A stretch of 64,000 nucleotides of DNA from Cloeon dipterum (taxonomy: Eukaryota; Arthropoda; Insecta; Ephemeroptera; Baetidae): contig NC_088788.1 in assembly GCF_949628265.1 (NCBI RefSeq), forward strand, positions 310,001 to 374,000. The letters run 5' to 3'. The notes beneath the pieces were generated by a model that did no database searches, had not been told where the DNA came from, and worked only from the letters and a program-made list of their open reading frames with translations. Positions 3,061-50,700 of this stretch are shown here, one piece after another. The first letter of the stretch is position 1, and every line of letters starts with the position of its first letter. A program made the position numbers and the translations under genes.

Positions 3061-3076
3061 AGAAAAATCTGTTCTG

Positions 3077-3268
3077 ACCTTTGTTTTGTAGGTTTGTTTG
3101 CAGCCGTTACACGGGACTGGACCATCGTCCCAGTAGCCGGCACCAGAAAGGGACGCTTCAGGTTTCAACCTCGACGTCATGAAAGCAGTCCCGCGAGCCT
3201 GGTTCCAAACTGGGCATCGTCATCTCGCTCAAATTCGACGTCTCACATGAGGGTCCTGTGATGCAATG
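3077..3268 (-). other. Repeated module upstream of array 1 (possible exon relic)
   Basis: This block recurs at 8,752-8,947 and, shortened, at 7,397-7,474. On the minus strand it contains a short open stretch reading GYWDDGPVPCNGCKQTYKTK, followed by a donor-like AAAG/GTCAG. That could be an exon of a duplicated gene with a C-x2-C motif. The copies differ in sequence and no acceptor is certain, so coding is only a possibility. In all three places the block runs directly into the 183-bp fold-back element. Confidence 0.35.
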
Positions 3269-3451
3269 CACTGCAAGTCAGGGGTGAGAAAATGTCACTG
3301 CGCTGCAGTGAGAAAATCTCACCCCACCGCATGTCACTGCTGTTACGTGTGAAAACAACTCCCCTTTGAATCCCCAAGAATAGTGGCATGCGGTGTGATG
3401 AGATATTCTTAATGCAGCGCATTGACATTTTCTCACCCCTGACTTGCAGTG
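3269..3451. mobile_element. 183-bp fold-back (MITE-like) element, copy 1
   Basis: The ends are inverted copies: the left end CACTGCAAGTCAGGGGTGAG matches the reverse complement of the right end for about 38 bases. A weaker inverted match continues inwards through the ACCGCATG / CATGCGGT pair, so nearly the whole element can fold on itself. It has no coding capacity. The same 183-bp element lies at 7,475-7,657 and 8,948-9,130, each time just before a tandem array. I could not define a target-site duplication. Confidence 0.75.
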
Positions 3452-3478
3452 TGGGGATTGGGAAATAAACAGAAGGAA

Positions 3479-6358
3479 TTTAAGGGAAAAAGTTAACAGC
3501 AGGGTATTCCCACTCGCGCCACAGGCACGAGCAGGATCCCTCTGCTGGGAATTAAAAGGAAAGGGAATTTAAAGGAAAAGGAATTTACAGGAAAAAGGAA
3601 AAGGTTAATAGCAGGGTATTCCCACTCGCGCCACAGGCACGGCCAGGATCCCACTACTGGGAATTAAAAGGAAAAGGAATTGAAAGGAAAATGGAAAAGG
3701 TTAACAGCAGGGTATTCCCAGCCGCACCACAGGCACGGCCAGGATCCCACTACTGGGAATTAAAAGGAAAAGGAATTGAAAGGAAAATGGAAAAGGTTAA
3801 CAGCAGGGTATTCCCAGCCGCACCACAGGCACGGCCAGGATCCCACTACTGGGAATTAAAAGGAAAAGGAATTTCAAGGAAAAAGGAAAAGGTTAACAGC
3901 AGGGTATTCCCAGCCGCACCACAGGCACGGCCAGGATCCCACTACTGGGAATTAAAAGGAAAAGGAATTGAAAGGAAAATGGAAAAGGTTAACAGCAGGG
4001 TATTCCCAGCCGCACCACAGGCACGGCCAGGATCCCACTACTGGGAATTAAAAGGGAAAGGAATTTAAAGGAAAAAGGAAAAGGTTAACAGCAGGGTATT
4101 CCCAGCCGCACCACAGGCACGGCCAGGATCCCACTACTGGGAATTAAAAGGAAAAGGAATTGAAAGGAAAATGGAAAAGGTTAACAGCAGGGTATTCCCA
4201 GCCGCACCACAGGCACGGCCAGGATCCCACTACTGGGAATTAAAAGGAAAAGGAATTTAAAGGAAAATGGAAAAGGTTAACAGCAGGGTATTCCCAGCCG
4301 CACCACAGGCACGGCCAGGATCCCACTACTGGGAATTAAAAGGAAAAGGAATTTAAAGGAAAATGGAAAAGGTTAACAGCAGGGTATTCCCAGCCGCACC
4401 ACAGGCACGGCCAGGATCCCACTACTGGGAATTAAAAGGAAAAGGAATTGAAAGGAAAATGGAAAAGGTTAACAGCAGGGTGTTCCCAGCCGCACCACAG
4501 GCACGGCCAGGATCCCACTACTGGGAATTAAAAGGGAAAGGAATTTAAAGGAAAAAGGAAAAGGTTAACAGCAGGGTATTCCCAGCCGCACCACAGGCAC
4601 GGCCAGGATCCCACTACTGGGAATTAAAAGGAAAAGGAATTGAAAGGAAAATGGAAAAGGTTAACAGCAGGGTATTCCCAGCCGCACCACAGGCACGGCC
4701 AGGATCCCACTACTGGGAATTAAAAGGAAAAGGAATTGAAAGGAAAATGGAAAAGGTTAACAGCAGGGTATTCCCAGCCGCACCACAGGCACGGCCAGGA
4801 TCCCACTACTGGGAATTAAAAGGGAAAGGAATTTAAAGGAAAAAGGAAAAGGTTAACAGCAGGGTATTCCCAGCCGCACCACAGGCACGGCCAGGATCCC
4901 ACTACTGGGAATTAAAAGGAAAAGGAATTGAAAGGAAAATGGAAAAGGTTAACAGCAGGGTATTCCCAGCCGCACCACAGGCACGGCCAGGATCCCACTA
5001 CTGGGAATTAAAAGGAAAAGGAATTTAAAGGAAAATGGAAAAGGTTAACAGCAGGGTATTCCCAGCCGCACCACAGGCACGGCCAGGATCCCACTACTGG
5101 GAATTAAAAGGAAAAGGAATTTAAAGGAAAATGGAAAAGGTTAACAGCAGGGTATTCCCAGCCGCACCACAGGCACGGCCAGGATCCCACTACTGGGAAT
5201 TAAAAGGAAAAGGAATTGAAAGGAAAATGGAAAAGGTTAACAGCAGGGTGTTCCCAGCCGCACCACAGGCACGGCCAGGATCCCACTACTGGGAATTAAA
5301 AGGGAAAGGAATTTAAAGGAAAAAGGAAAAGGTTAACAGCAGGGTATTCCCAGCCGCACCACAGGCACGGCCAGGATCCCACTACTGGGAATTAAAAGGA
5401 AAAGGAATTGAAAGGAAAATGGAAAAGGTTAACAGCAGGGTATTCCCAGCCGCACCACAGGCACGGCCAGGATCCCACTACTGGGAATTAAAAGGGAAAG
5501 GAATTTAAAGGAAAAAGGAAAAGGTTAACAGCAGGGTATTCCCAGCCGCACCACAGGCACGGCCAGGATCCCACTACTGGGAATTAAAAGGAAAAGGAAT
5601 TGAAAGGAAAATGGAAAAGGTTAACAGCAGGGTATTCCCAGCCGCACCACAGGCACGGCCAGGATCCCACTACTGGGAATTAAAAGGAAAAGGAATTGAA
5701 AGGAAAAAGGAAAAGGTTAACAGCAGGGTATTCCCAGCCGCGCCACAGGCACGGCCAGGATCCCACTACTGGGAATTAAAAGGAAAAGGAATTTCAAGGA
5801 AAAAGGAAAAGGTTAACAGCAGGGTATTCCCAGCCGCACCACAGGCACGGCCAGGATCCCACTACTGGGAATTAAAAGGAAAAGGAATTGAAAGGAAAAT
5901 GGAAAAGGTTAACAGCAGGGTATTCCCAGCCGCACCACAGGCACGGCCAGGATCCCACTACTGGGAATTAAAAGGGAAAGGAATTTAAAGGAAAAAGGAA
6001 AAGGTTAACAGCAGGGTATTCCCAGCCGCACCACAGGCACGGCCAGGATCCCACTACTGGGAATTAAAAGGAAAAGGAATTGAAAGGAAAATGGAAAAGG
6101 TTAACATCAGGGTATTCCCAGCCGCACCACAGGCACGGCCAGGATCCCTCTGCTGGGAATTAAAAGGAAAGGGAATTTAAAGGAAAAGGAATTTACAGGA
6201 AAAAGGAAAAGGTTAATAGCAGGGTATTCCCACTCGCGCTACAGGCACGAGTTAGATCCCACTGCTGGGAATTAAATGGAAAGGAATTTAAAGGAAAAAG
6301 GAAAAGCTAACAGCAGGGTATTCCCACTCGCGCCACTGGCACGGGCGGGGCCGCCCTG
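3479..6358. repeat. Tandem array 1, 96-bp unit, about 30 copies
   Basis: The period of 96 bases is direct from the text: the GGTTAACAGCAGGG phrase recurs every 96 positions from about 3,600 to 6,100. Each unit contains an inverted pair (ATTCCCAG ... CTGGGAAT) around a shorter GCCG/CGGC pair, then an A/G-rich linker. Edge units at 3,490-3,690 and 6,140-6,350 are more diverged than central ones. Shared variants such as GGTGTTCCC at two places 768 bases apart (8 units) show block duplication. Because 96 is a multiple of three, short frames without stops appear; they are by-products. Confidence 0.95.
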
Positions 6359-6392
6359 CTGAGAAAATTAAAGAAAAAGAAATTGGACTCAC

Positions 6393-6477
6393 CCTAAATG
6401 TGCCCGTGGTCCTCGATCGTCGGCTGGTGGTCGCTGGCCCCTCAATCATTGCTGCAGACAAGTACCGCGCACGTCAT
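6393..6477 (-). pseudogene. Degenerate first-exon module, copy c
   Basis: On the minus strand an ATG at 6,477 starts MTCAVLVCSND and then meets a stop. The copy keeps a downstream GGTGAGTCC donor-like end. It aligns with copies at 12,683-12,767, 11,926-12,016, 7,257-7,376 and, more weakly, 13,782 upwards. Upstream (higher coordinates) lies the shared promoter-like segment with a CGCATGCGCA site. I read it as a decayed duplicate of a promoter plus first exon. Confidence 0.4.
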
Positions 6478-6511
6478 CCTACCGTCACTGCCAGTTAAAG
6501 ACTAATGAGTG

Positions 6512-6545
6512 TTAAGGAGAGTAAAGGTACCTTTACTCTCCTTAA
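6512..6545. repeat. 34-bp perfect palindrome flanked by a direct repeat
   Basis: The 34 bases centred on GGTACC read the same on both strands (arms of 17). AATGAGTG occurs at 6,504-6,511 and again at 6,544-6,551. The homologous module at 12,030-12,060 lacks the palindrome, so it looks like an insertion or a template-switch product in this copy. Confidence 0.8.
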
Positions 6546-6556
6546 TGAGTGTGAGA

Positions 6557-6684
6557 GTAGGAGCAGCGAAGCAACAGCAAGACACCAAAACAGGGGAAGG
6601 AGTGGGGGCAATCGTTGCTTGTTTAATGGTTGATCGCTCCCCACTCCTTCCCCTCTTTTGGTGATTCTGGCTGCTTCTCCTTAA
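6557..6684. repeat. Imperfect inverted repeat in promoter-like module, copy 1
   Basis: The left arm begins AGGAGCAGCGAAGC and runs through CACCAAAA and GGGGAAGGAGTGGGG. The right arm carries the reverse complement (CCCCACTCCTTCCCC, TTTTGGTG, GCTGCTTCTCCTT). The loop is about 25-30 bases. The same structure recurs at 12,057-12,168. Confidence 0.7.
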
Positions 6685-6700
6685 GTGCCACCGCTAGCTA

Positions 6701-6710
6701 CGCATGCGCA
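6701..6710. promoter_or_regulatory. NRF1-like site CGCATGCGCA in repeated promoter-like segment
   Basis: CGCATGCGCA matches the core of the NRF1/Ewg palindrome. The surrounding segment, with GTCTGGCTCCGCC and GTTTAGCCCGCGAAATA-like phrases, recurs at 12,176-12,260. It sits upstream of the minus-strand first-exon copies, which fits a promoter. Activity is inferred. Confidence 0.4.
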
Positions 6711-6789
6711 CATGTGCCGTCTGGCTCCGCCTCCTACTTCACATGCACAACGTTTGGCTTTTAGCCCGCGAAATACGCTTGCCTGCAAT

Positions 6790-7256
6790 CACGCGCTCCG
6801 CGATTCAAAGCCAATTTATTAAAATTTTACATATATTTAGTTTTTTTAAACTATCGGCAGGACCAATAAACACGAATAAAATTTTTCGATCAAATATTTC
6901 GTCCTGGTCCCGGTCAAATTGCGCCACGTTCATCAAACTCCCGCATTTTCATTGTCGAATTGATTGTTGACCTTGTCACTCAACAAGGGAATTCGCGTTT
7001 GGTTGATGAAAGTTGCGCAATTTTACCTAAACCAGAACGATTTAGTTAATTTTGCGATTCCTTTAAATTGCGGTATTTTTTACAAATTCTAATTAATTAT
7101 TAATGTTTTTTAAATTCGAAGAATATAGACTAGTAAGCACAATTTTTCCGCCATCAAAGTGCTGTAAGTACATAAAGAGTTGCTCGCGATTATGTGACGA
7201 AAACGCGAGGAAATTCTTGGCCACCAGATTAAGAAATAATAAGTATTTGCACTCAC
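6790..7256. other. Spacer inside the repeat cluster
   Basis: AT-rich sequence without a recognisable gene. Its right end (about 7,165-7,256: CTCGCG, GAAAACGCGAG, then CACTCACC) matches 12,608-12,685 and more weakly 13,695-13,782. The duplicated module therefore includes some intron sequence below the first-exon donor. Confidence 0.5.
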
Positions 7257-7376
7257 CCGAAAATGTGGAAGTCGGCCGCCGGTCAGCCGAATTCCACACC
7301 ATCCTTGGTAGCTATCTGGTTGTCGCTAGCCGGTCAATCATCAATCGCGGCTGCAGACCAGCACCGCGCACGTCAT
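7257..7376 (-). pseudogene. Degenerate first-exon module, copy d
   Basis: The minus-strand ATG at 7,376 gives MTCAVLVCSRD and then a stop. The copy is expanded relative to copy a and ends at a GGTGAGT donor-like site. At about 7,390-7,400 the module is fused directly to the sequence found inside the 3,077-3,268 block. The intervening promoter segment is missing, so this is a rearranged junction. Confidence 0.4.
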
Positions 7377-7474
7377 CCTCCCGTCACTCGACGTCGTGAA
7401 CGCGAGCCTGGCGCCAAACTGGGCATCATCTTACTCAACTTCGACGTCGCACATGAGGGTCCTGTGATACAATG

Positions 7475-7657
7475 CACTGCAAGTCAGGGGTGAGAAAATG
7501 TCACTGCGCTGCAGTGAGAAAATCTCACCCCACCGCATGTCACTGCTGTTACGTGTGAAAACAACTCCCCTTTGAATCCCCAAGAATAGTGGCATGCGGT
7601 GTGATGAGATATTCTTAATGCAGCGCATTGACATTTTCTCACCCCTGACTTGCAGTG
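7475..7657. mobile_element. 183-bp fold-back element, copy 2
   Basis: Near-identical to 3,269-3,451, including the internal sequence. It is again followed at once by a tandem array. The flanking bases on the left (CCTGTGAT.CAATG) match copy 1. The element and its neighbours were therefore probably duplicated together rather than inserted three times. Confidence 0.75.
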
Positions 7658-7659
7658 TG

Positions 7660-8749
7660 GGAAAAAGGAAAGAGCAGGGTCACACCCACAAGCGTCTAAA
7701 ACACAGGCGGGCATGACCCTGCTGGAAATTAAGTTTAAAAGGGAAAATTAATTGAAAAAGGAAAAAGCAGGGCCACACCCACAAGCGTCAAAAACACAGG
7801 CGGGCATGACCCTGCTGGAAATTAAGTTAAAAGGGAAAATTAATTGAAAAATGAAAGAGCAGGGTCACACCCACAAGCGTCAAAAACACAGGTGGGCATG
7901 ACCCTGCTGGAAATTAAGTTAAAAGGGAAAATTAATTGAAAAATGAAAGAGCAGGGTCACACCCACAAGCGTCGAAAACACAGGCGGGCATGACCCTGCT
8001 GGAAATTAAGTTAAAAGGGAAAATTAATTGAAAAATGAAAGAGCAGGGTCACACCCACAAGCGTCAAAAACACAGGCGGGCATGACCCTGCTGGAAATTA
8101 AGTTAAAAGGGTAAATTAATTGAAAAATGAAAGAGCAGGGTCACACCCACAAGCGTCAAAAACACAGGCGGGCATGACCCTGCTGGAAATTAAGTTTAAA
8201 AGGGAAAATTAATTGAAAAAGGAAAAAGCAGGGCCACACCCACAAGCGTCAAAAACACAGGCGGGCATGACCCTGCTGGAAATTAAGTTAAAAGGGAAAA
8301 TTAATTGAAAAATGAAAGAGCAGGGTCACACCCACAAGCGTCGAAAACACAGGCGGGCATGACCCTGCTGGAAATTAAGTTAAAAGGGAAAATTAATTGA
8401 AAAATGAAAGAGCAGGGTCACACCCACAAGCGTCGAAAACACAGGCGGGCATGACCCTGCTGGAAATTAAGTTAAAAGGGAAAATTAATTGAAAAATGAA
8501 AGAGCAGGGTCACACCCACAAGCGTCGAAAACACAGGCGGGCATGACCCTGCTGGAAATTAAGTTAAAAGGGAAAATTAATTGAAAAATGAAAGAGCAGG
8601 GTCACACCCACAAGCGTCTAAAACACAGGCGGGCATGACCCTGCTGGAAATTAATAAGTTTAAAAGGGAAAATTAATTGAAAAAGGAAAAAGCAGGGTCA
8701 CACCCACAAGCGTCGAAAACACAGGCGGGCATGACCCTGCTGGAAAACT
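7660..8749. repeat. Tandem array 2, 92-bp unit, about 12 copies
   Basis: Spacing is 92 bases (GAGCAGGGTC at 7,857, 7,949 and 8,041). Each unit carries a perfect 10-base inverted pair, AGCAGGGTCA and TGACCCTGCT, about 30 bases apart, then an A-rich linker ending GGGAAAATTAATTG. Units alternate between GCGTCAAAAAC, GCGTCGAAAAC and GCGTCTAAAAC variants. Confidence 0.95.
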
Positions 8750-8751
8750 CA

Positions 8752-8947
8752 GTACTGACCTTTGTTTGGTAGGTGCGTTTGCAGGCGTTGTTCTGGACTG
8801 GACCCTCATCCCAGTAGCCGGCACCAGAAAGGGACGTTTCAAGTTTCAACCTCGACGTCGTGAACGCAGAGTCCCGCGAGCCCGGCACCAACTGGACATC
8901 ATCTCACTCAACCTTGACGTCTCACATGAGGGTCCTGTGTTACAATG
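8752..8947 (-). other. Repeated module upstream of array 3 (possible exon relic)
   Basis: Second full copy of the 3,077-3,268 block. On the minus strand it reads GAGYWDEGPVQNNACKRTYQ, then TK at an AAAG/GTCAGT donor-like site. The cysteine spacing differs from copy 1. No upstream acceptor is certain. It may be a relic or a rapidly diverging exon. Confidence 0.35.
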
Positions 8948-9130
8948 CACTGCAAGTCAGGGGTGAGAAAATGTCAATGCGCTGCAGTGAGAAAATCTCA
9001 CGCCGCTGCATGTCACTGCTGTTACGTGTAAAAACAACTCCCCTTTGAATCCCCAAGAATAGTGGCATGCGGTGTGATGAGATATTCTTAATGCAGCGCA
9101 TTGACATTTTCTCACCCCTGACTTGCAGTG
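8948..9130. mobile_element. 183-bp fold-back element, copy 3
   Basis: Same length and ends as the copies at 3,269 and 7,475. In this copy the left arm has GTCAATGCGC and so pairs perfectly with the right arm. Copies 1 and 2 carry GTCACTGCGC there. Confidence 0.75.
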
Positions 9131-11898
9131 TGGGAAATAGGAAAGAGCAGGGTCATCCCCACAAGCGTCAAAAACGCCGGCGGGGACGTCCCTGCTGGAT
9201 ATTACAAAGAAAAGGGAAAATTAAGGAAAAAATGGAACAGCAAGGTCATCCCCGCAAGCGTCAGAAACGCCGGCGGGGACGTCCCTGCTGGATATTACAA
9301 AGAAAAGGGAAAATTAAGGAAAAAATGTAACAGCAGGGTCATCCCCGCAAGCGTCAGAAACGCCGGCGGGGACGTCCCTGCTGGATATTACAAAGAAAAG
9401 GGAAAATTAAGGAAAAAATGGAACAGCAAGGTCATCCCCGCAAGCGTCAGAAACGCCGGCGGGCACGTCCCTGCTGGATATTACAAAGAAAAGGGAAAAT
9501 TAAGGAAAAAATGGAACAGCAGAGTCATCCCCGCAAGCGTCAGAAACGCCGGCGGGCACGTCCCTGCTGGATATTACAAATAAAAGGGAAAATTAAGGAA
9601 AAAATGGAACAGCAAGGTCATCCCCGCAAGCGTCAGAAACGCCAGCGGGCACGTCCCTGCTGGATATTACAAAGAAAAGGGAAAATTAAGGAAAAAATGG
9701 AACAGCAGGGTCATCCCCGCAAGCGTCAGAAACGCCGGCGGGCACGTCCCTGCTGGATATTACAAAGAAAAGGGAAAATTAAGGAAAAAATGGAACAGCA
9801 AGGTCATCCCCGCAAGCGTCAGAAACGCCGGCGGGCACGTCCCTGCTGGATATTACAAAGAAAAGGGAAAATTAAGGAAAAAATGGAACAGCAGGGTCAT
9901 CCCCGCAAGCGTCAGAAACGCCGGCGGGCACGTCCCTGCTGGATATTACAAAGAAAAGGGAAAATTAAGGAAAAAATGGAACAGCAAGGTCATCCCCGCA
10001 AGCGTCAGAAACGCCGGCGGGCACGTCCCTGCTGGATATTACAAAGAAAAGGGAAAATTAAGGAAAAAATGGAACAGCAGAGTCATCCCCGCAAGCGTCA
10101 GAAACGCCGGCGGGCACGTCCCTGCTGGATATTACAAATAAAAGGGAAAATTAAGGAAAAAATGGAACAGCAAGGTCATCCCCGCAAGCGTCAGAAACGC
10201 CAGCGGGCACGTCCCTGCTGGATATTACAAAGAAAAGGGAAAATTAAGGAAAAAATGGAACAGCAGGGTCATCCCCGCAAGCGTCAGAAACGCCGGCGGG
10301 CACGTCCCTGCTGGATATTACAAAGAAAAGGGAAAATTAAGGAAAAAATGGAACAGCAGGGTCATCCCCGCAAGCGTCAGAAACGCCGGCGGGCACGTCC
10401 CTGCTGGATATTACAAAGAAAAGGGAAAATTAAGGAAAAAATGGAACAGCAAGGTCATCCCCGCAAGCGTCAGAAACGCCGGCGGGCACGTCCCTGCTGG
10501 ATATTACAAAGAAAAGGGAAAATTAAGGAAAAAATGGAACAGCAGGGTCATCCCCGCAAGCGTCAGAAACGCCGGCGGGCACGTCCCTGCTGGATATTAC
10601 AAAGAAAAGGGAAAATTAAGGAAAAAATGGAACAGCAGGGTCATCCCCGCAAGCGTCAGAAACGCCGGCGGGGACGTCCCTGCTGAATATTACAAAGAAA
10701 AGGGAAAATTAAGGAAAAAATGGAACAGCAGGGTCATCCCCGCAAGCGTCAGAAACGCCGGCGGGAACGTCCCTGCTGGATATTACAAAGAAAAGGGAAA
10801 ATTAAGGAAAAAATGGAACAGCAGGGTCATCCCCGCAAGCGTCAGAAACGCCGGCGGGGACGTCCCTGCTGGATATTACAAAGAAAAGGGAAAATTAAGG
10901 AAAAAATGGAACAGCAGGGTCATCCCCGCAAGCGTCAGAAACGCCGGCGGGCACGTCCCTGCTGGATATTACAAAGAAAAGGGAAAATTAAGGAAAAAAT
11001 GGAACAGCAAGGTCATCCCCGCAAGCGTCAGAAACGCCGGCGGGCACGTCCCTGCTGGATATTACAAAGAAAAGGGAAAATTAAGGAAAAAATGGAACAG
11101 CAAGGTCATCCCCGCAAGCGTCAGAAACGCCGGCGGGCACGTCCCTGCTGGATATTACAAAGAAAAGGGAAAATTAAGGAAAAAATGGAACAGCAGAGTC
11201 ATCCCCGCAAGCGTCAGAAACGCCGGCGGGCACGTCCCTGCTGGATATTACAAAGAAAAGGGAAAATTAAGGAAAAAATGGAACAGCAAGGTCATCCCCG
11301 CAAGCGTCAGAAACGCCGGCGGGCACGTCCCTGCTGGATATTACAAAGAAAAGGGAAAATTAAGGAAAAAATGGAACAGCAAGGTCATCCCCGCAAGCGT
11401 CAGAAACGCCGGCGGGCACGTCCCTGCTGGATATTACAAATAAAAGGGAAAATTAAGGAAAAAATGGAACAGCAAGGTCATCCCCGCAAGCGTCAGAAAC
11501 GCCGGCGGGCACGTCCCTGCTGGATATTACAAAGAAAAGGGAAAATTAAGGAAAAAATGGAACAGCAGGGTCATCCCCGCAAGCGTCAGAAACGCCGGCG
11601 GGCACGTCCCTGCTGGATATTACAAAGAAAAGGGAAAATTAAGGAAAAAATGGAACAGCAGGGTCATCCCCGCAAGCGTCAGAAACGCCGGCGGGGACGT
11701 CCCTGCTGAATATTACAAAGAAAAGGGAAAATTAAGGAAAAAATGGAACAGCAGGGTCATCCCCGCAAGCGTCAGAAACGCCGGCGGGGACGTCCCTGCT
11801 GAATATTACAAAGAAAAGGGAAAATTAAGGAAAAAATGGAACAGCAGGGTCATCCCCGCAAGCGTCAGAAACGCCGGCGGGCACGACCCTGCTGAGAA
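9131..11898. repeat. Tandem array 3, 93-bp unit, about 30 copies
   Basis: ATGGAACAGC recurs every 93 bases from 9,232. Each unit folds as nested pairs: AGCAGGG/CCCTGCT outside, CCCCGC/GCGGGG in the middle and GCGT/ACGC inside, around a CAGAA loop. A 31-codon unit leaves one plus-strand frame open for 422 codons (9,418-10,686) and 329 codons (10,720-11,709), and a second frame open near the left edge. Breaks come from single TGG-to-TGA changes shared by units. Variants CAGAGTCATC, CAGCGGGC and AAATAAAAGG recur 558 bases (6 units) apart, showing block duplication. I treat the array as non-coding. Confidence 0.95.
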
Positions 11899-11925
11899 AA
11901 GAATGAAAACAGAATTTGGACTCAC

Positions 11926-12016
11926 CCTAAATGTGGCCGTGGTCCTCTGCAGTCGCCTGGTGGTCGCTGGCTGTAAATGATGAAGCGCGGCTGCAGACCG
12001 GAACCGCGCACGACAT
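11926..12016 (-). pseudogene. Degenerate first-exon module, copy b
   Basis: The minus-strand ATG at 12,016 starts MSCAVPVCSRA and runs 29 codons to EDHGHI. The codon that is TAC in copy a is TAG here, immediately before G/GTGAGT. One base thus separates it from the open copy. The promoter-like segment with the NRF1-like site follows at higher coordinates. Confidence 0.45.
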
Positions 12017-12056
12017 CGTCCCGTCACTGCCAGTTACAGACTAATGAGAGTGAGAG

Positions 12057-12168
12057 TAGGAGAAGCGAAGCAGCAGCCAGACACCAAAAGTTGAAGGAGT
12101 GGGGGAAAAGGTAACTTGTTCGCTTCCACTCCTTCCCCTCTTTTGGTGACTCTGGCTGCTTCTCCTTA
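12057..12168. repeat. Imperfect inverted repeat in promoter-like module, copy 2
   Basis: Counterpart of 6,557-6,684. The arms contain CACCAAAAG...GAAGGAGTGG and CCACTCCTTC...CTTTTGGTG, and outside them AGGAGAAGC and GCTTCTCCTT. The loop sequence differs from copy 1 while the arms are kept. Confidence 0.7.
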
Positions 12169-12175
12169 AATGCCA

Positions 12176-12185
12176 CGCATGCGCA
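12176..12185. promoter_or_regulatory. NRF1-like site CGCATGCGCA, second copy
   Basis: Same ten bases as at 6,701-6,710, in the same surroundings. It lies 160 bases upstream (minus-strand sense) of first-exon copy b, a plausible promoter distance. Confidence 0.4.
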
Positions 12186-12682
12186 GTTGTTCGGTCTGGC
12201 TCCGCCTTCTATTTCACATGAACAACGTTTGGCGTTTAGCCCGCGAAATAAGCTTAGTGAAATGAAATGATATGCGTAAAATCAACGTTGTGTTTAAAAT
12301 ATTATTCGTACCGTAAAACTGCGCAACTTTCAACAACTAAACGCGAATTTCCCTGCTGCAAGAAAAGGGCAACAACTGATTTAACCCCGAAAATCTGCGT
12401 TTGACTTTAGTGATGCACAATTTTTCCGCGAGCAGGACGAATGGCAGGTTTAAAATGGCGGATGCACCCGAACTTCAACTCAAAAAACAAACTCAATGTC
12501 AATTCTATTATTGCCCATTTCATTCATCAAGAAAGTCGTGTTTGTTTGTTAAGAATATGATGTTCTGCGCAATTTATTTAATATCAAGACTCAATAATTA
12601 ATGCTTAGTGGCTCGCGAGAATTTAGCGAAAACGCGATGAAAATCTTAGCTCCCAAAATATGATATAATGTAGTGTACTCAC

Positions 12683-12767
12683 CGTAAATGTGACCGTGGT
12701 CCTCTATCGTCACCTGGTGGTCGCTGGCCTCTCCATCACGGCTGCAGACCAGCACCGCGCACGTCAT
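12683..12767 (-). CDS. Candidate first coding exon of an unknown minus-strand gene (copy a)
   Basis: This is the only one of the duplicated first-exon modules that stays open from ATG (12,767) to a good donor (G/GTGAGTAC, with the intron starting at 12,682). It encodes 28 residues beginning MTCAVLVCSRDGEASDHQ and ending EDHGHIY, then one base of the next codon. I do not recognise the family. No matching downstream exon is certain: the GYWDDGPV modules at 8.8 and 3.1 kb lie in the right direction and are candidates, with the arrays as introns. It may instead be the least decayed of a set of pseudogenes. Confidence 0.3.
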
Positions 12768-12789
12768 CTTCCAGTCTTCCAGTCGTTGC

Positions 12790-13469
12790 CAGTAAAAGAC
12801 TAATGATATAGTAGGAGAAGCGATAATAACACTCCCACAGCTTTAGGCAATCATATAAAAATTAGCCCAGATAGGACTGAAAAAATACAAATGATAAAAG
12901 TGCATGAGTTATGAAGACCACATCCGGGAAATTTTTCAGCACCACACTGATTTAACCATCTTGAAAGAGCAACCAAGTCAGAGGTAACGCTCATTCCGAA
13001 TGAGATGCTTTTAATTAATGCGCGTGTAATCGCCTCTGGAAGGCAATCGACGGGTGTGTGTGTGTGTGCGATAGCTCTTTGAATGCATGAAATAGAGGGT
13101 GGACGGGGTGGTGCTATTTTTTATGAAGGCATGCAACCCGCTCGTTCCCTGTGACCGCAGCCGGTTGCATAATTAGAAAAACAATTGCTTTCAAGTTTTC
13201 AATCCGTCCATTCATTGGACAATTCTGTAGCTTTTATCAGAAAAAAATGAATGAATCTCTACATGAATGTGTTCTGATCAGACTGCTAATTAAAAATCCT
13301 CTAAATAATCGAGTTTTCAATGATGCGTCACACTTAAATGAGTAGTTGTCTTTAAATTTGAGCAATAATTGATAGCCTTTTTTAAATATCACTACATAAT
13401 TGTAATAGTTTTTTTCCACTTCCAAACATTTAAGTTAGACAAAAAAATAAACAAACTCGATTATTTCAG
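12790..13469. other. Non-coding stretch
   Basis: No exon or repeat family recognised, apart from a short (GT)n run at about 13,053-13,069. The right end, TTATTTCAG at 13,461-13,469, is the acceptor of the next feature. Confidence 0.5.
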
Positions 13470-15950: not shown

Positions 15951-15984
15951 GGGTGGGTGGGTGGGTGGGTGGGTGGGTGGGTGG
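15951..15984 (+). repeat. (GGGT)n microsatellite, G-quadruplex candidate
   Basis: About eight GGGT repeats on the plus strand, starting 16 bases past the nudE stop codon (16,000). The run lies in the 3' untranslated region as C-rich RNA, and the G-rich strand is the transcription template. Four or more GGG runs with one-base loops satisfy the usual quadruplex pattern. Confidence 0.85.
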
Positions 15985-15999
15985 TTTAAGCCAATTTTA

Positions 16000-18766
16000 T
16001 CAGGCTCGGATTAATCCAGAAGGAGTTTTGCCGCTTTTCGTCGGCGAGTTGTTGTTGTTGACGCTCTTGGCTGGGGTGTTTGATGTGGAGGTGCGGGCGC
16101 TTTTCACTCTCGTCCTGCCAAACAAATCAAAAGGTCAGCCGGAAACGAATCGAATTGCATGCAGTGCACATGGAACAAACTAATATTAAAGCAGCCATGA
16201 TGAATGATATATCATGCTGTATGGTGAATATTTATTAAAAAATATCATGAGGTTAGTCGGTCCAAATAAAAAGGAGAAATCTCTGAGATTGTTCCATGCC
16301 ATCAAAAGCTGACAAGGAAACTCCTTTAAGGATTTGACGTTCCAATTTTTTAATCTTTTAATTGAGATAAACTGTCAAGGGAGTGATAATTATTGTAGAT
16401 ATTATCGAATTCATTGTTGATTTTAGCCAATATAACAATATCTGTTGAACCGACGATTTCGTCAACAACTAAAACGTCAAATCTAAAGAGATTCCTTGTT
16501 AAAAAAAATCAGATGTAAATAAATTGCAAACCACGAAGAGAGAAATTGGTTGATGCATGCCCAAAGAAACACAAATTAGTTCTATAATCCAATTGAGAGT
16601 GAGACCACAGGCACCCTGATGAAGTAACCCTGCACACTTTCTTTCTTTCTTTCTTTAGTCGGCTAACGAGAAAAGCAGCGTTAAGATGTCAATAAAAGTG
16701 AGTGCTCGTTGTTTAATTGCGCATTCTAGCTAATCAAATCAGGTGGTGTCTCACTTGCTTCAAACCCTGCGAGTCCGGACAAACCTTGGTGACTCGGTCG
16801 AGTTGGGGTCGCTGCGCCGAGGTAGGCTCCGAGCGTGCGCCACCTTGTTCTCCAGGGCGCTGACGTTGCGCAGCAGGTCGCCCACGATGTTCAGCGCGGA
16901 AATGCGCGCTGACGGCGTCAGCGCTGGCGAAGCGGCACCTGCATTGTGCTGCGTGCTCACCTTCAACGGAGTCCCTGCAAATTTAAAATTACAAAATTCG
17001 TGAAATCTGTTTCAATAACATTTTCTGAATGTTTTTAAGTACTTTTTCTACAAAAAATAACAAACCGAAACAGATCGACGGTCACTCGGAAGGACCAAAA
17101 GGATCGAAAAGTCCCGCGAAAGGACCGAAAGGATTGAATTGCCCCGCGAAAGGACTGAAAGGTCACTCAAAAGGACCGAAGTGACTGAAAGGTCCCGCGA
17201 AAGGAACGAATTGCCCCGCAAAATGACTGAAAGGTCCCATGAAAGGACCGAATGGTCGAGCAAATTGTTTGGTCCTACGTGGGACCAGATGGTTCCTAAT
17301 TAAATCGACGCTAAGACTATCAGTCAGATCAAACCGTAGTTTTTTGACTCGGCGTGGATCTGCGCAGAACGAACGCGCGTCGGCCAAGCTAATCCGCGCG
17401 TGACTCTTAATTAAACATGTCAAAGATGCCTGGATTTCTTGTGTGAAATCTTCAAAACTGTCGAACCGTTATCTCATTGCCATAGAGTGAAAGACTGATA
17501 GTCCGTGTGAGAGATTAAGTAGTTATATAAACGCTAAATTCAAATTTTTATATCTGATCGGGAAAAAAACGATTTTTTGAAGTGATTATTAGATTTTAAA
17601 TGGGATACGTACCAGGTGATTCAATTTCATACTTGATCAGCTTGTCATGTGATTTGCTCAGTTCCAAATTCTTCTTGTTCTCAACGTCAGGCAATTCTCT
17701 CCTTTGTTCCCTCACTTTAAGCTCGTGTCGCAAATCACGAGACTCGTCCTTTAGCCTTTGAACCTGGAATCAAAAGTTTTTAATTGTTAAATCAAAACAT
17801 GTTTTCAGATTGCCAGCAAAAATTTAACGCCATATCATGGAAATAAATTTGTTTAACTTATTTCTTGTGTCAGCTAATTAAAAATTCTTTGTATGTAGAA
17901 CAGGAAAAGATAAGAGCGACTGACAAACAAATTGAAAAGGCTAAAGAGCGAGGATTACCATAGCCTTTAGGCTCTCTTTGTCATCTAGCTCTGACTCGAT
18001 GAAGACGTTTCTCTCGATCGACAAATTGAGCCTGGTCTCGAGGTCTTCGATGGTGGCGTGCATGATCCGAGAAGACTTCTCAAACTCGTCGTTGCTCTGC
18101 TCGAGGTCCCGAATGTACTTGTGGAGTCCCTCGGCGTTGCGTCGGTGCTGCTGCAGCTCGCTGCCCAGGGTGTTTAGTTCTTGGTGGTACTCCTGCTGCA
18201 TTTCCTCGTTTCGTTTCTTGAGATCTTCGTAGTCCCTCTGTAATTGGTTGTAGGCCGATTCCAGGCCGTGCAGCCGCGTCTCCGCCTGCTCGCACTGCGC
18301 TTCCAGCTCGCGTTCCAATTCGTGCGAATTTAGCTGCAACACAATAAAATTGCCACGTTAATAATTATCGATTGCTGTCCTATAAATTAAATTTCCTGAC
18401 GCAATTGCACACACACACGTGTGATTGAACTTGAGTCTATTAACTATTATATAAAAATCAACTTGACATACTGCCAAATTTTAGCCTTGATCAGCCTTGC
18501 CGTTACATATTGGTGGATTACGCCCTTGAAAATTTCGAAAATATCGACCATTTCACGCGAAACAAATAACGTGTGTGCATCGGAAGGCCCGGCAGCAAGG
18601 GCGTTTGCAAACTTGCGGATTGAATGGAGTCGTGACGCATGTATACCTGAAATTCCTCGAGGTCCTCCCTGGCTTCCTTCATTCCTTGTTGGTATTGAAG
18701 AGCCAAGTGTTTCCAGTATTTGGCCTCCTCTTCGGCCGAGCCGAAATTGGGCACGTTGTCGGCCAT
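16000..18766 (-). CDS. nudE: Nuclear distribution protein NudE (NDE1/NDEL1 family)
   Basis: NudE is a dynein regulator that bridges LIS1 and the dynein complex in nuclear migration and mitosis. Exons: 18,647-18,766; 17,959-18,333; 17,613-17,763; 16,785-16,974; 16,000-16,114. These total 951 bases, 316 residues, about the family's usual length. All junctions are GT-AG and in phase. The start [19 protein letters not shown] matches the family start. Residues about 5-215 are almost entirely coiled coil, with the conserved [19 protein letters not shown] stretch in exon 2 (LIS1-binding region). Exon 4 carries the hallmark [18 protein letters not shown], followed by ALENKVA. The C-terminus is short and ends in SGLIRA. 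A 15-30-bp imperfect minisatellite fills part of intron 3. Identification is secure; only the last exon rests on splice phase alone. Confidence 0.95.
17075..17275. repeat. Imperfect minisatellite in nudE intron 3
   Basis: Variants of GGACCGAAAGG, TCCCGCGAAA and GAATTGCCCCGCGAAA alternate at 15-16 and about 30 bases. There are about a dozen degenerate units. It lies wholly within the intron 16,975-17,612, and any open frame through it is incidental. Confidence 0.8.
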
Positions 18767-47799: not shown

Positions 47800-50700
47800 G
47801 GCGTACTGCTGCTGTTGATGCTGCTGCTGGTGCTGCCGCGTGTGCTCGGGGGCCAAAGTGGGCGTGAGGGGCGCCTGGCCCATCATCTCGTGCTGCTGCT
47901 GCATGTGCTGGTACTGCTGCTGCTGCTGGCCAGGGTACTGCTGCCCGTACTGCGGCTGCTGGGGGTTGTAGTACATTTGCTGCATCTGCTGGTGAGGCGG
48001 TGGCTGCTGCATCGGCGCAGGAACGTGCGGCTGCTGCACCATGCCCGAGCCGTCCGCGTTGCCCTCCTGACAAATTAGAAACGAATTTATTCAATTGGAT
48101 CGAAACAGGGCGCAAATTATTTCAATTTTTGGATGGAATAAATAGTTTGGAATAATTAATTTAGTTCCTATTCGAAAACTTGAAGCGCTTGACCACATTT
48201 TCTAGGCAGATTCAAATTTCTCTCGTCGAGATATGTCCAACAGTGAATGAAACCTTTTAGCGAAACTCTTTTTTGAAGAAATAAAATCAGATTTCAAGTA
48301 AGGAGACATAATCACTTATCTTTATTTCGAATTTTTTAAAATTCGAGTAATTTCCGAATTAATATTAAATTTTGGAATACCGAAAATACGGCATGTTAAA
48401 TTATTTTCTAGGTATAGGAAAAATGTTGCCTAGAAATTTTCAGAGTCTTTCGAACAGTGAGAAATTCTAAATCGGATTGTTTTGACGCAGGGAGCCTGCC
48501 AGGAGTCATTCCAGAGTTCAGATAAGATTATTAAAACAGATTAAAATTATGTAAACATAATCTAAAGATGCACGATCGTCACATTTTCGCGATTTTCCAC
48601 AGACACGTATTGGTTTACTGTAATTGCTACCAGTTCGATGCGGTTTTTGCGCTTAATTCCAGATTGACTGGTTTTTCCACCTTCTAAATCAACCATAAAT
48701 CCAGTAGAGGACTGCTATTTAAGGACATGTAACTTGGTCCGCAGGAACTAATTTTAACTCGCAAAACATGTGTGGGAATCCCTTTTTAATGTGAATATCT
48801 GCGGATAATCCCACGATACTGATATCAGCAAAGTCTCAAAACTGAAGGACATCCTCAGTCTAATTATACGTTAAATTATCAGATTCAGTCTAAATCAAGG
48901 TGAAATAACAGAAACAAAAATATAAAATTAAAAACAAATAACCAAGACGCTTAATTTGAATTATTTGTCAGACTTTACTGACCTTTGAAACCAACGTGGC
49001 GCGGTAAGCAGCCAAGGCCTTGAGGTAATCCTTCTTCGCCAATTCTGTCTTTTTCTTGTATACCTGAAAAGGAAGTCGCGTTAGAAATTGGAAGTGCGCA
49101 TTTCTAACGAGTGAACAACTTACGTTTTTGTTATCGACATCCAGTCCGTCCCACATGCTGGCCACGATTTTGGAAACTTCGCCAAAGCTGGCATTTGGAT
49201 TCGAGGTCTTGATCGCCGCCTGCGTGTCTCGGAAAAATAACGCGTACGCAGACACAGGCCTGAAACAAAATTTTAAATTATTAGGCAAAATTATGAAAGC
49301 GACACAATATTTTATTTCTTTTATTAAATGGGCAGCAGATAAAATTAAAATAACGATGAAATGCCGTTCTATTTTAACCTTTGATTGGTAATCAACTTTC
49401 TCTTTTCGTATTTGAGAGAAGAAGGGGTTTTTAATTTTCAGCAAAAGCGTGTATCGTTCGGTTGCAACACGGAGAATGTCCTCGCTTCCGATTTTTTTTA
49501 AATAAATAAATTTATTCCGGTCGCAAGGACACGCGGATTTTTCGTCCTCCATTTCTTCGGTTGTGTGCAAATCGGGAAAATAACACGGGAAGATGTTGAG
49601 TTTAGCGAGGAAGACGTGTACGCGGATTCGGTCGCTCGCGCGCGATAATATTCGTGAAAGTCGAAAGTTAGAGCTTGCGCCGCGAGTTGGATGTGAAAGC
49701 AGAACTGCTTTTTATAAATAATGATTTACATCATTGATCTTTGAGCGAGCCAGTTTTCAGATTTGATTACGTCACAAAAATGCGCTCGGCGCAGCGGCGG
49801 CGAAAATCCGATTTGTCTTTTATTGCGTTACGTTTGTAGCCTTTTACGTGTATTATAGCCGTTCTTCCTCTCTGCGCGAGTCAAATGAAAATTTAATTTC
49901 CTTTGAATTGTGTACCGCTATACACACATCTCTTCTGAGCAACTCTGTCAGCGCCGTTCGATAAAATGCAACAAACTTGTTAGCAGCACAAGAGCTTTAA
50001 ATTTTAGGTCAACTCGCGAATAAAGCAAGAGACGACGCGATTCCATCATTCAGGCAAGAAAGAAAATCGATTGCCTGTGCTCTGTTGTACTAATCATCCC
50101 TGCCATTCAGCCATTCAGCCGGCGTTTATATATATCTATATAATATTACTTTCTTTTTTGTGTTGCGTTGCGTCTCGTGTAATGGACGAGGGGGAAAAAG
50201 GGGGAAAACTTTGATGAACGCTCTCAACGTTGCAAGTTTGTAAATTGCAATATCAAAGCGCGGAGAACAAAAGAAAGACACGACTTCGCGGAAGCGAGCT
50301 CCGTTTTTTTCTTATTTGCTTTTAGGGATTTGCTTTTAGCAGGAAAGTTGTTTACAACAAAACTAGGCTGCAAATTCAATTTCAAATAACGCCACCAACA
50401 TTAAAATTTAATTTTTCCTTAAAAATAAGATTTGAGTGACGGCAGAGCAAAATGCACTCATCATCATGGTGTTTATTCCTTTTTTTTGTTGTTTATAATT
50501 CGGCTGGCCATTGTGTTGGAAATAAATAAATAAATAATTGAGCCGGGCACAATGGAGTGCTGAGCGCGAGTGCAGCAGCGCTGGAGGGGAATCCGTCAAA
50601 GGAGAGGAGAAGGGCCTCGTCAACAGGTACACGCGGAGGAAAAAATTAGAGTTTGAAGGTAAAGGAAGGTCAATCCGGTCGGGCGGTCGGGACGGATGGT

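What the first reader, a model, noticed from the sequence alone, without database searches (positions are those of the whole stretch)
3077..11898. Three unrelated-length satellites launched from one repeated cassette
Three tandem arrays (96, 92 and 93 bp units) follow three near-identical copies of one cassette: an upstream block, then a 183-bp fold-back element, then the array. The unit sequences are too different to be one array simply expanded. Yet all share GCAGGG at the left, a centre with CAGGC, GGCGGG or GGCACGG, a right-hand inverted partner and an A/G-rich linker. This looks like a cassette whose right flank repeatedly gives rise to its own minisatellite, or one ancestral array that diverged in unit length after cassette duplication. 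I know of no described system that matches this arrangement.
Basis: partly seen in the sequence, partly recalled or inferred. Interest (0 to 1): 0.75.

Follow-up and report, generated by a model that had tools for sequence, protein, structure and literature searches.

The report
Mayfly gene-fragment cassettes carrying minisatellites
The three repeat arrays are not three unrelated inventions but, most likely, one small hairpin sequence that was multiplied separately inside copies of the same duplicated patchwork of gene pieces near mayfly chromosome ends, with an unrelated small transposon beside it.

Summary
The window comes from the mayfly Cloeon dipterum, about 0.31 Mb from one end of a 37-Mb contig. 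Three arrays follow a 183-bp fold-back element, but the array is internal: a conserved right block follows arrays A and C; array B lacks it. All 34 cassettes read carry the array hairpin (one to about 73 counted units) at the same place. The fold-back element is a dispersed MITE: 30 stand-alone copies, 27 with matching 2-bp flanks, none with an array in the flank read. In cassettes it sits at one TG/TG site: a single ancestral insertion, a passenger. The unit classes are homologous: a 49-55-bp hairpin plus an A/G-rich linker of about 30-63 bp. Some arrays keep other variants at their edges than inside, and two cassettes hold a single unit, so a seed hairpin amplified and turned over locus by locus is the best reading. 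The flanks are mosaics of gene pieces: a myosin-X-like exon, an exon piece matching a FYRN-domain (KMT2/trithorax-like) gene, and conserved splice-site-like motifs. How the cassettes spread is unresolved; limited checks found no TIRs or LTRs, and a suspected Helitron end failed.

The parts
3062..3268 (-). Cassette A, left block. On the minus strand it reads as a decayed exon ('exon B') between an acceptor-like CACAG|G and a donor-like AAAG|GT; the last ~100 bp next to the MITE are the common core
3269..3451 (+). Cassette A, 183-bp fold-back element = MITE with termini CACTGCAA...TTGCAGTG, flanked by TG/TG
3498..6361 (+). Cassette A, array of class iv units (mostly 96 bp; 112 and ~94 bp variants at the ends); last unit intermediate towards class i/ii
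6384..6780 (-). Cassette A, right block; on the minus strand exon-like, ending at donor-like G|GTGAGTCC (plus-strand ACTCACC); contains an inverted repeat with 25-nt arms (6583-6607/6639-6663)
7316..7388 (+). Cassette B, fragment of right block fused to the left of the core at TCGACGTCG (mosaic junction)
7387..7474 (-). Cassette B, common core (proximal ~88 bp of the left block)
7475..7657 (+). Cassette B, MITE, identical to that of cassette A, TG/TG flanks
7673..8744 (+). Cassette B, array of class ii units (92 bp, 11.7 copies); no right block, runs straight into cassette C
8743..8947 (-). Cassette C, left block incl. common core
8948..9130 (+). Cassette C, MITE (97% to A and B), TG/TG flanks
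9146..11894 (+). Cassette C, array of class i units (93 bp, 29.6 copies; 51-bp hairpin + 42-bp linker)
11915..12255 (-). Cassette C, right block, donor-like motif at 11918-11926
12674..12823 (.). Second partial copy of the right block, ~760 bp further right (a similar second copy is seen in L011 and L018)

Best explanation
The finding is three members of a family of at least 34 duplicated, chimeric gene-fragment cassettes near the chromosome ends of Cloeon dipterum. Each is built as [gene-derived left block - common core - MITE - hairpin array - right block], some with parts missing. Inferred history: an ancestral cassette held one ~51-bp hairpin in a short intron-like stretch (minus strand: donor-like GGTGAGT in the right block, acceptor-like CACAG|G in the core). 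One MITE inserted at TG beside it. The cassette was copied among chromosome-end regions with much mosaic exchange, and at each locus the hairpin plus its A/G-rich linker expanded by slippage or unequal exchange. Turnover was faster inside arrays than at their edges, so loci show different interior units. Unit length differs mainly because the linker, which contains ~16-19-bp subrepeats, gains and loses pieces. Shown: same place and alike junctions in the copies read, homology of unit classes, single-insertion MITE, edge/interior difference in a minority of arrays, single-unit copies, gene-derived flanks. Inferred: the slippage/unequal-exchange mechanism, the intron origin and the order of events.
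For: 34 of 34 cassettes have hairpin units to the right of the MITE (32 of 33 by script; L045, whose MITE is split by an insertion, by inspection; L075, its first unit itself interrupted); 0 of 30 stand-alone MITEs do (29, L076). MITE flanks are TG/TG in 30 of 33 cassettes and in L075; stand-alone flanks are TA, AA, TT, CA, TG or CT and match in 26 of 29, plus L076 CA/CA. Hairpin length among 545 extracted units: 51 bp in 404, 53-55 in 108, 49-50 in 32, 39 in 1; linkers 30 to 63 bp, counting only spacings that leave under 75 bp. In 21 arrays with at least 8 counted units, interior units differ from their consensus by a mean of 0.51 positions (highest array 2.62), first units by 2.56 (16 comparable; median 1; 6 of 16 by 3 or more), last units by 3.8 (10 comparable; median 2; 4 of 10 by 3 or more) (which corrects for L047). 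L028 (44 units): interior class ii, both edges class i; L016 and L049: first unit class ii, interior class i; L019 the reverse. L021 and L024 have exactly one unit between MITE and right block, L029 three diverged ones. Myosin-X-like parent exon with intact frame at C2:0.27 Mb; exon-B relative next to a FYRN exon at C5:32.94 Mb. ACTCACC (minus GGTGAGT) at 20 of 20 right blocks tested, CCTGTG (minus CACAGG) within 20 bp of the MITE in 32 of 33 cores.
Against: In most arrays edge and interior agree in class: only 4 of 27 differ for the first unit and 3 of 17 for the last. Flank and array histories correlate only weakly (core vs interior unit r 0.20, p 0.034; core vs MITE r 0.25, p 0.018; MITE vs interior r 0.12, p 0.11; 27 arrays), as expected of mosaic exchange but also of arrays moved between loci by conversion instead of grown in place. 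L023/L024, whose left flanks are 94.7% identical over 2.2 kb, carry single units of different class (L023 also has a broken second unit). Class iv (array A) is the weakest homologue: its main unit does not exceed arms-fixed shuffles against class i (p 0.123); the link rests on its terminal units and position. Single-unit copies could be collapsed arrays instead of seeds. No cassette with the array but without the MITE was found, so the order MITE versus array is not fixed by an empty site.
Confidence: 0.72

Rival explanations
1. The 183-bp fold-back element (or the cassette) actively nucleates new minisatellites on its right flank, so that each copy generated its own array.
For: The element abuts the array within tens of bp in the cassettes read. 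Long palindromes promote rearrangement (recalled).
Against: 0 of 30 stand-alone copies have array units. Arrays share alike junctions and homologous units. The element has one and the same TG/TG site in the cassettes, i.e. one insertion.
Confidence: 0.05
2. The whole cassette is a non-autonomous rolling-circle element (Helitron/HINE type) with internal tandem repeats and captured exons, and transposition spread it.
For: Three different kinds of left sequence join the core at or next to one TCGACGTCG point (L011's second cassette and L019 join nearer the MITE). Captured pieces of two host genes. The right blocks of A and C contain an inverted repeat (25-nt arms, 96% complementary, and 17-nt arms, 82%), as a HINE right flank would. 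Organisation resembles Cg_HINE, related flanks with varying central repeats (PMC7492417).
Against: The apparent shared CTAAT 3' end is not an end: six other copies (L011, L017, L018, L021, L022, L028) stay homologous beyond it. Outer limits of homology differ between pairs of copies on both sides. TRF lists no microsatellite in the left blocks of A and C. The long palindrome beside the array is a TSD-flanked MITE. Copies cluster at contig ends, whereas Cg_HINE showed no positional preference.
Confidence: 0.22
3. The arrays are functional: tandem hairpins in an intron of a transcribed chimeric gene, acting as hairpin RNA or splicing-regulatory units, kept by selection.
For: Hairpin length is near-constant while linkers vary. 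Both-side changes in paired columns occur in 29 cells against a shuffled mean of 8.8 (0 of 500 reach it), and 85.6% of cells pair against 35-40% in slid controls. Class i and ii units fold better than all shuffles. The donor-like motif is present at 20 of 20 right blocks tested while the bases before it vary.
Against: The number of pairs with a both-side change (5) is no more than shuffles (mean 4.5; 266 of 500 reach it), every shuffle has at least as many pair types, and the rows are related, so few events are involved. The main unit of array A has lost the fold (z -1.04). Exon frames are mostly broken. No expression data.
Confidence: 0.06
4. The three arrays were brought together by misassembly.
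For: Repeats of this kind are hard to assemble; not tested with reads.
Against: The same arrangement occurs at 31 other places on five contigs, with various flanks and units.
Confidence: 0.02

Closest known systems
Cg_HINE non-autonomous Helentrons of Crassostrea gigas (PMC7492417; abstract, sections 7 and 9 and found passages seen)
   Same: Dispersed elements with central satellite-like arrays; related flanks can carry different monomers; some copies hold only about 1.5-2 monomers; some elements carry two consecutive arrays; a palindrome lies in the right flank, as an inverted repeat does here.
   Different: Here no left microsatellite was found and the 11-12-bp subTIRs were not specifically sought; units ~90-112 bp (plus ~65-bp variants) instead of mostly 140-180; up to about 73 counted units instead of at most 29; copies cluster at contig ends; flanks are host exons; the long palindrome beside the array is a separate MITE.
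Tetris foldback transposon and TIR-220 satellite of Drosophila virilis (PMC4079207; abstract and outline seen)
   Same: Fold-back structure associated with internal tandem repeats that expand into satellite-like arrays in heterochromatin.
   Different: In Tetris the repeats are part of the terminal inverted repeats; here the fold-back element and the array are separate neighbours, and none of 30 stand-alone fold-back copies carries the array.
MITEs with 2-bp target duplications
   Same: 183-bp element, 70-nt inverted arms, dispersed, 2-bp duplications (TA/TA in 16 of 29).
   Different: Superfamily not assigned; the duplication is not strictly TA. Likeness of the CACTG ends to CACTA/Mirage/Chapaev-type elements is recalled, not tested.
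Intronic minisatellites and concerted evolution of tandem arrays (recalled, general knowledge)
   Same: Homogeneous interior and, in some arrays, divergent edge units.
   Different: Here the same array recurs in dozens of duplicated cassettes with differing interior units.

Membership tests
MITE (the 183-bp element) | Terminal inverted repeats | tested here: met
   70-nt arms, 87-90% complementary in the three window copies; CACTGCAA...TTGCAGTG ends in all 12 stand-alone copies printed.
MITE (the 183-bp element) | Target-site duplication at dispersed insertion sites | tested here: met
   Matching 2-bp flanks in 26 of 29 stand-alone copies (its 30 no-core rows include the second half of the split L045 copy, left out here) plus L076, so 27 of 30.
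MITE (the 183-bp element) | Mobilising transposase identified | not tested
   No search for an autonomous partner was made.
Helitron | Common 3' end CTRR with hairpin, insertion at AT, no TSD | tested here: not met
   The one candidate end, CTAAT in L015, is not an end in the six other copies compared.
HINE / DINE-1 (non-autonomous Helentron) | subTIRs, left microsatellite, palindrome in the right flank | tested here: inconclusive
   An inverted repeat does lie in the right block of A and of C; no microsatellite in their left blocks; 11-12-bp subTIRs were not specifically sought.
TIR DNA transposon (whole cassette) | Inverted repeats joining left and right ends | tested here: inconclusive
   Self-BLAST of the first 15 kb shows no inverted match between left and right blocks, but the outer ends are not known.
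LTR retrotransposon (whole cassette) | Long direct terminal repeats | tested here: inconclusive
   The direct repeats found are cassette modules, chiefly right-block copies; outer ends not known.
Satellite/minisatellite with concerted evolution | Homogeneous interior, divergent edge units | tested here: met
   Mean mismatches 0.51 inside, 2.56 first unit (median 1), 3.8 last unit (median 2); class differs at the first unit in 4 of 27 and at the last in 3 of 17 arrays.

The most novel reading that the evidence does not exclude
The cassette is a mobile or actively copied unit of no known transposon class that carries its own exon-intron start (right block with donor, array as intron, acceptor in the core), has fused itself to exons of at least two host genes (a myosin-X-like gene and a FYRN-domain, KMT2/trithorax-like gene), spreads almost only among chromosome ends, and grows a private minisatellite in its intron at each new site.
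Probability: 0.13. Interest if true: 0.6.

Novelty: new variant of a known kind. Interest (0 to 1): 0.33.

Why it matters
It is a natural replicate experiment for minisatellite birth: homologous seed sequences placed at dozens of loci, with one-unit, short and long (about 73 units) outcomes and flanks whose divergence can be measured. That would let one estimate how fast arrays grow, how edges preserve other variants, and how unit length drifts through the linker. It also shows how a MITE can look causal beside an array while being a passenger, and it documents duplicated exon mosaics near mayfly chromosome ends.

Tried and rejected
Rejected or left open: (1) A Helitron end: one search suggested a shared CTAAT 3' end and seemed to repeat it, but printing the flanks showed continued homology in the other copies. 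(2) Zinc-finger nature of exon B: real translations gave no usable Pfam match (none for one, DUF7385 E 0.079 for the other); one search is discarded (see below). (3) Rfam: 0 matches in the window at gathering thresholds. (4) MITE-less cassette (empty site): the left-block places without the MITE that I read (L044, L046, L048) are fragments with no array units. (5) Covariation as proof of selection: mixed result. (6) Outer ends of the cassette: limits differ by pair of copies. (7) Edge/interior numbers included L047, where two arrays separated by a left-block fragment had been pooled; one search leaves L047 out, and one search shows that the first counted unit lies within 60 bp of the MITE in the other 32 cassettes. 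One search also mislabelled the last units of L012 and L026; one search corrects the labels. (8) Literature on mayfly satellites: (terms mayfly, satellite DNA) listed 3 papers, none about mayfly satellites by title and abstract start; one search listed the Cloeon genome paper PMC7250882, whose passages give a 180-Mb assembly with 5% transposable elements and no occurrence of satellite or Helitron in the main text. Searches were otherwise seen as listings only.
Full report
What is in the window. Tandem Repeats Finder gives arrays of 96 bp (3563-6191, with 112-bp and ~94-bp variants at the ends, together about 3485-6384), 92 bp (7662-8744) and 93 bp (9146-11894). Each is preceded by a 183-bp element with 70-nt inverted arms. 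Self-comparison shows that cassettes A and C are homologous over their length, 3062-6780 and 8743-12255, including a right block after the array. Cassette B lacks the right block and runs into C; a piece of right block is fused to its left. So the array is inside a larger unit, not launched from its edge.

Where it is. An ORF of a fetched locus is 100% identical to a Cloeon dipterum protein on a contig of 43,195,403 bases, the length of contig C1 of this genome. The genome has 190.1 Mb in 10 contigs, and the window is C3:310001-374000. The 33 cassettes listed lie within 20% of the contig's length from an end; the 34th, L075, is at C2:35.31 of 37.46 Mb. On C1, C3, C4 and C5 the cassettes read are at one end only; on C2 nine are at the low end and one at the high end. 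Stand-alone copies of the 183-bp element, in contrast, also occur in the middle of contigs.

I read 34 cassette copies and 30 stand-alone copies of the 183-bp element: 62 (63 rows, because the interrupted copy in L045 gave two) plus L075 and L076. They include all 40 best-scoring places (28 cassette, 12 stand-alone) and the 18 stand-alone places that one search added. Those searches scored only 40 of 161 and 40 of 167 first-look candidates, so weaker copies were not read. All 34 cassette copies have hairpin units to the right (L021 and L024 a single one; in L045 the MITE and in L075 the first unit is interrupted), and 0 of 30 stand-alone copies do in the 220-500 bp read on each side. Stand-alone copies have matching 2-bp flanks in 27 of 30 cases, most often TA (16 of the 29). 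Cassette copies have TG/TG in 30 of 33 and in L075. The element is therefore a MITE that entered the ancestral cassette once.

The arrays are one thing. The stretch between MITE and first unit (33 printed) and between last unit and right block (20 printed) is alike in most cassettes; array A's left junction is the most different. Hairpins of 51 bp (classes i and ii) and 53-55 bp (class iii) align over 55 columns with 80% mean column identity in 43 selected sequences. Among 545 hairpins extracted by an arm-based pattern, 404 are 51 bp, 108 are 53-55, 32 are 49-50 and 1 is 39, while linkers vary from 30 to 63 bp. The pattern misses some units, so counts are lower bounds, and it misses the short ~65-bp unit type of L025, L026, L030 and others, in which the inner part of the hairpin is absent. 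Class iv of array A is the most divergent, but its last unit matches class i at 38 of 53 and class ii at 36 of 51 alignment columns, exceeding arms-fixed shuffles (p 0.005 and 0.000); its main unit does not against class i (p 0.123).

Edges and seeds. In 21 arrays with at least 8 counted units, interior hairpins differ from their consensus by 0.51 positions on average, first units by 2.56 (16 comparable, median 1) and last units by 3.8 (10 comparable, median 2). In class, the first unit differs from the interior in 4 of 27 arrays (L016, L019, L028, L049) and the last in 3 of 17 (L012, L018, L028). In L028 the interior is class ii and both ends are class i. So the edge effect is strong in a minority and slight or absent in the rest. 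L021 and L024 have exactly one unit, L029 has three diverged ones, and L023 breaks off in its second. This is what local amplification from a seed with interior turnover predicts; collapse of longer arrays is the alternative for the single-unit copies.

What the flanks are. Two main left-block types exist. Type 2 carries, on the minus strand, a decayed exon of a myosin: the fragment alone scores weakly (Myosin_head E 0.035, IQ E 0.075). A protein search of the genome finds 15 places. The one at C2:269549-269698 has a 291-aa open frame that is clearly myosin (Myosin_head E 1.3e-22, IQ E 1.4e-7), with myosin-X as nearest solved structure. Its 606-1078 segment matches nine type-2 cassettes at 70-80% DNA identity, and pieces of it match others. 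Comparing coordinates, I place the other 14 next to type-2 cassettes. Type 1 carries another decayed exon; its most intact form (L029) has relatives at C5:32.94 Mb (68% over 31 residues, 187-aa open frame) and C1:35.75 Mb (57% over 35, 280-aa open frame). The C5 place also has a FYRN domain (E 2.1e-9, above the curated cut-off). That this is a KMT2/trithorax gene is inference from the FYRN domain and a Taspase-site-like QLDGADD motif recognised from memory.

An intron-like setting. On the minus strand the right block ends in GGTGAGT: plus-strand ACTCACC is present at 20 of 20 right blocks tested (18 of 20 in the narrower stretch), while the bases before it vary. CACAGG lies within 20 bp of the MITE in 32 of 33 cores. 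The array therefore lies where an intron would lie. If the two sites were used, the frame of copies such as L015 would run on from ...DHGHIK to GPSCET.... Most copies have stops, several already at that point. This is inference from sequence; no transcript was examined.

Hairpins. The 92- and 93-bp units and a 94-bp unit of L028 fold better than all 200 shuffles (z -5.8, -4.9, -3.5); the main 96-bp unit does not (z -1.0), nor does the L030 slice tested, which was cut across two units (z -1.3). On the 43-row alignment 85.6% of cells pair against 35-40% in slid controls, and both-side changes occur in 29 cells against 8.8 in shuffles; but the number of pairs with such a change (5) equals shuffles (4.5), and every shuffle has at least as many pair types. 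I read this as few compensatory events, which either weak constraint or template-switch correction of quasi-palindromes could produce (the latter recalled).

How the cassette spread. Unresolved. Outer limits of homology vary by pair. Three kinds of left sequence join the core at or next to TCGACGTCG, while L011's second cassette and L019 join nearer the MITE, and the right block recurs as its own module. The suspected Helitron end failed. The right blocks do contain an inverted repeat, a point for a HINE-like element. Flank and array distances correlate weakly (core-MITE r 0.25, core-interior r 0.20, MITE-interior r 0.12, first-interior r 0.80; 27 arrays), consistent with mosaic exchange. Segmental duplication among chromosome-end regions is my favoured route; a rolling-circle element remains possible.

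Known relatives. Cg_HINE elements in oyster are the closest described arrangement that I found (PMC7492417) and Tetris/TIR-220 of Drosophila virilis the closest fold-back case (PMC4079207). Membership in neither is shown. The result is ordinary in principle, minisatellite growth inside a dispersed duplicated unit, and unusual in detail: homologous seeds at dozens of loci, gene-exon flanks and a passenger MITE.

Noticed in passing
window 9418-10686 and 10720-11709: Because 93 bp is 31 codons, array C contains chance open frames of 422 and 329 codons; automatic gene prediction may call them genes.
   Followed up: no
window 6512-6545: Perfect 34-nt palindrome TTAAGGAGAGTAAAGGTACCTTTACTCTCCTTAA in the right block of cassette A; none such was listed for cassette C in the same call.
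   Followed up: no
window 6898-7026 and 12313-12441: A ~130-bp sequence lies to the right of both right blocks, in opposite orientations (72% identical).
   Followed up: no
window 15951-15984: (GGGT)8.5 simple repeat, telomere-like in look, about 326 kb from the contig end.
   Followed up: no
window 17090-17264: Degenerate 30-51-bp tandem repeat rich in AAAGGACCGAAAGG.
   Followed up: no
window 48968-49570, minus strand: Open frame with an HMG-box-like stretch ([41 protein letters not shown]), TOX-like from memory.
   Followed up: no
L045 346-492: The MITE of this cassette is split by an insertion with a long poly-A run, SINE-like in look.
   Followed up: no
L012, oriented 5902-8001: A separate 163-bp tandem array (12.9 copies) lies just beyond the right block of a cassette; L046 holds a 175-bp array after a left-block fragment.
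   Followed up: no
L025, L026, L030, L050, L052, L054: Class iii arrays mix ~91-bp and ~65-bp units, the short one lacking the inner part of the hairpin.
   Followed up: partly
window 3269-3451 and 7475-7657: The MITEs of cassettes A and B are identical and C is 97%, although the left blocks of A and C are only 84% identical, suggesting local gene conversion of the MITE.
   Followed up: partly
L047 517-2601: Two arrays of different unit class (ii, then i) follow each other, separated by a fragment of left block.
   Followed up: partly
L074 (C1:35.75 Mb): A relative of the FYRN-gene exon in which further coding-like sequence follows without the break seen at C5, like a retrocopy.
   Followed up: no
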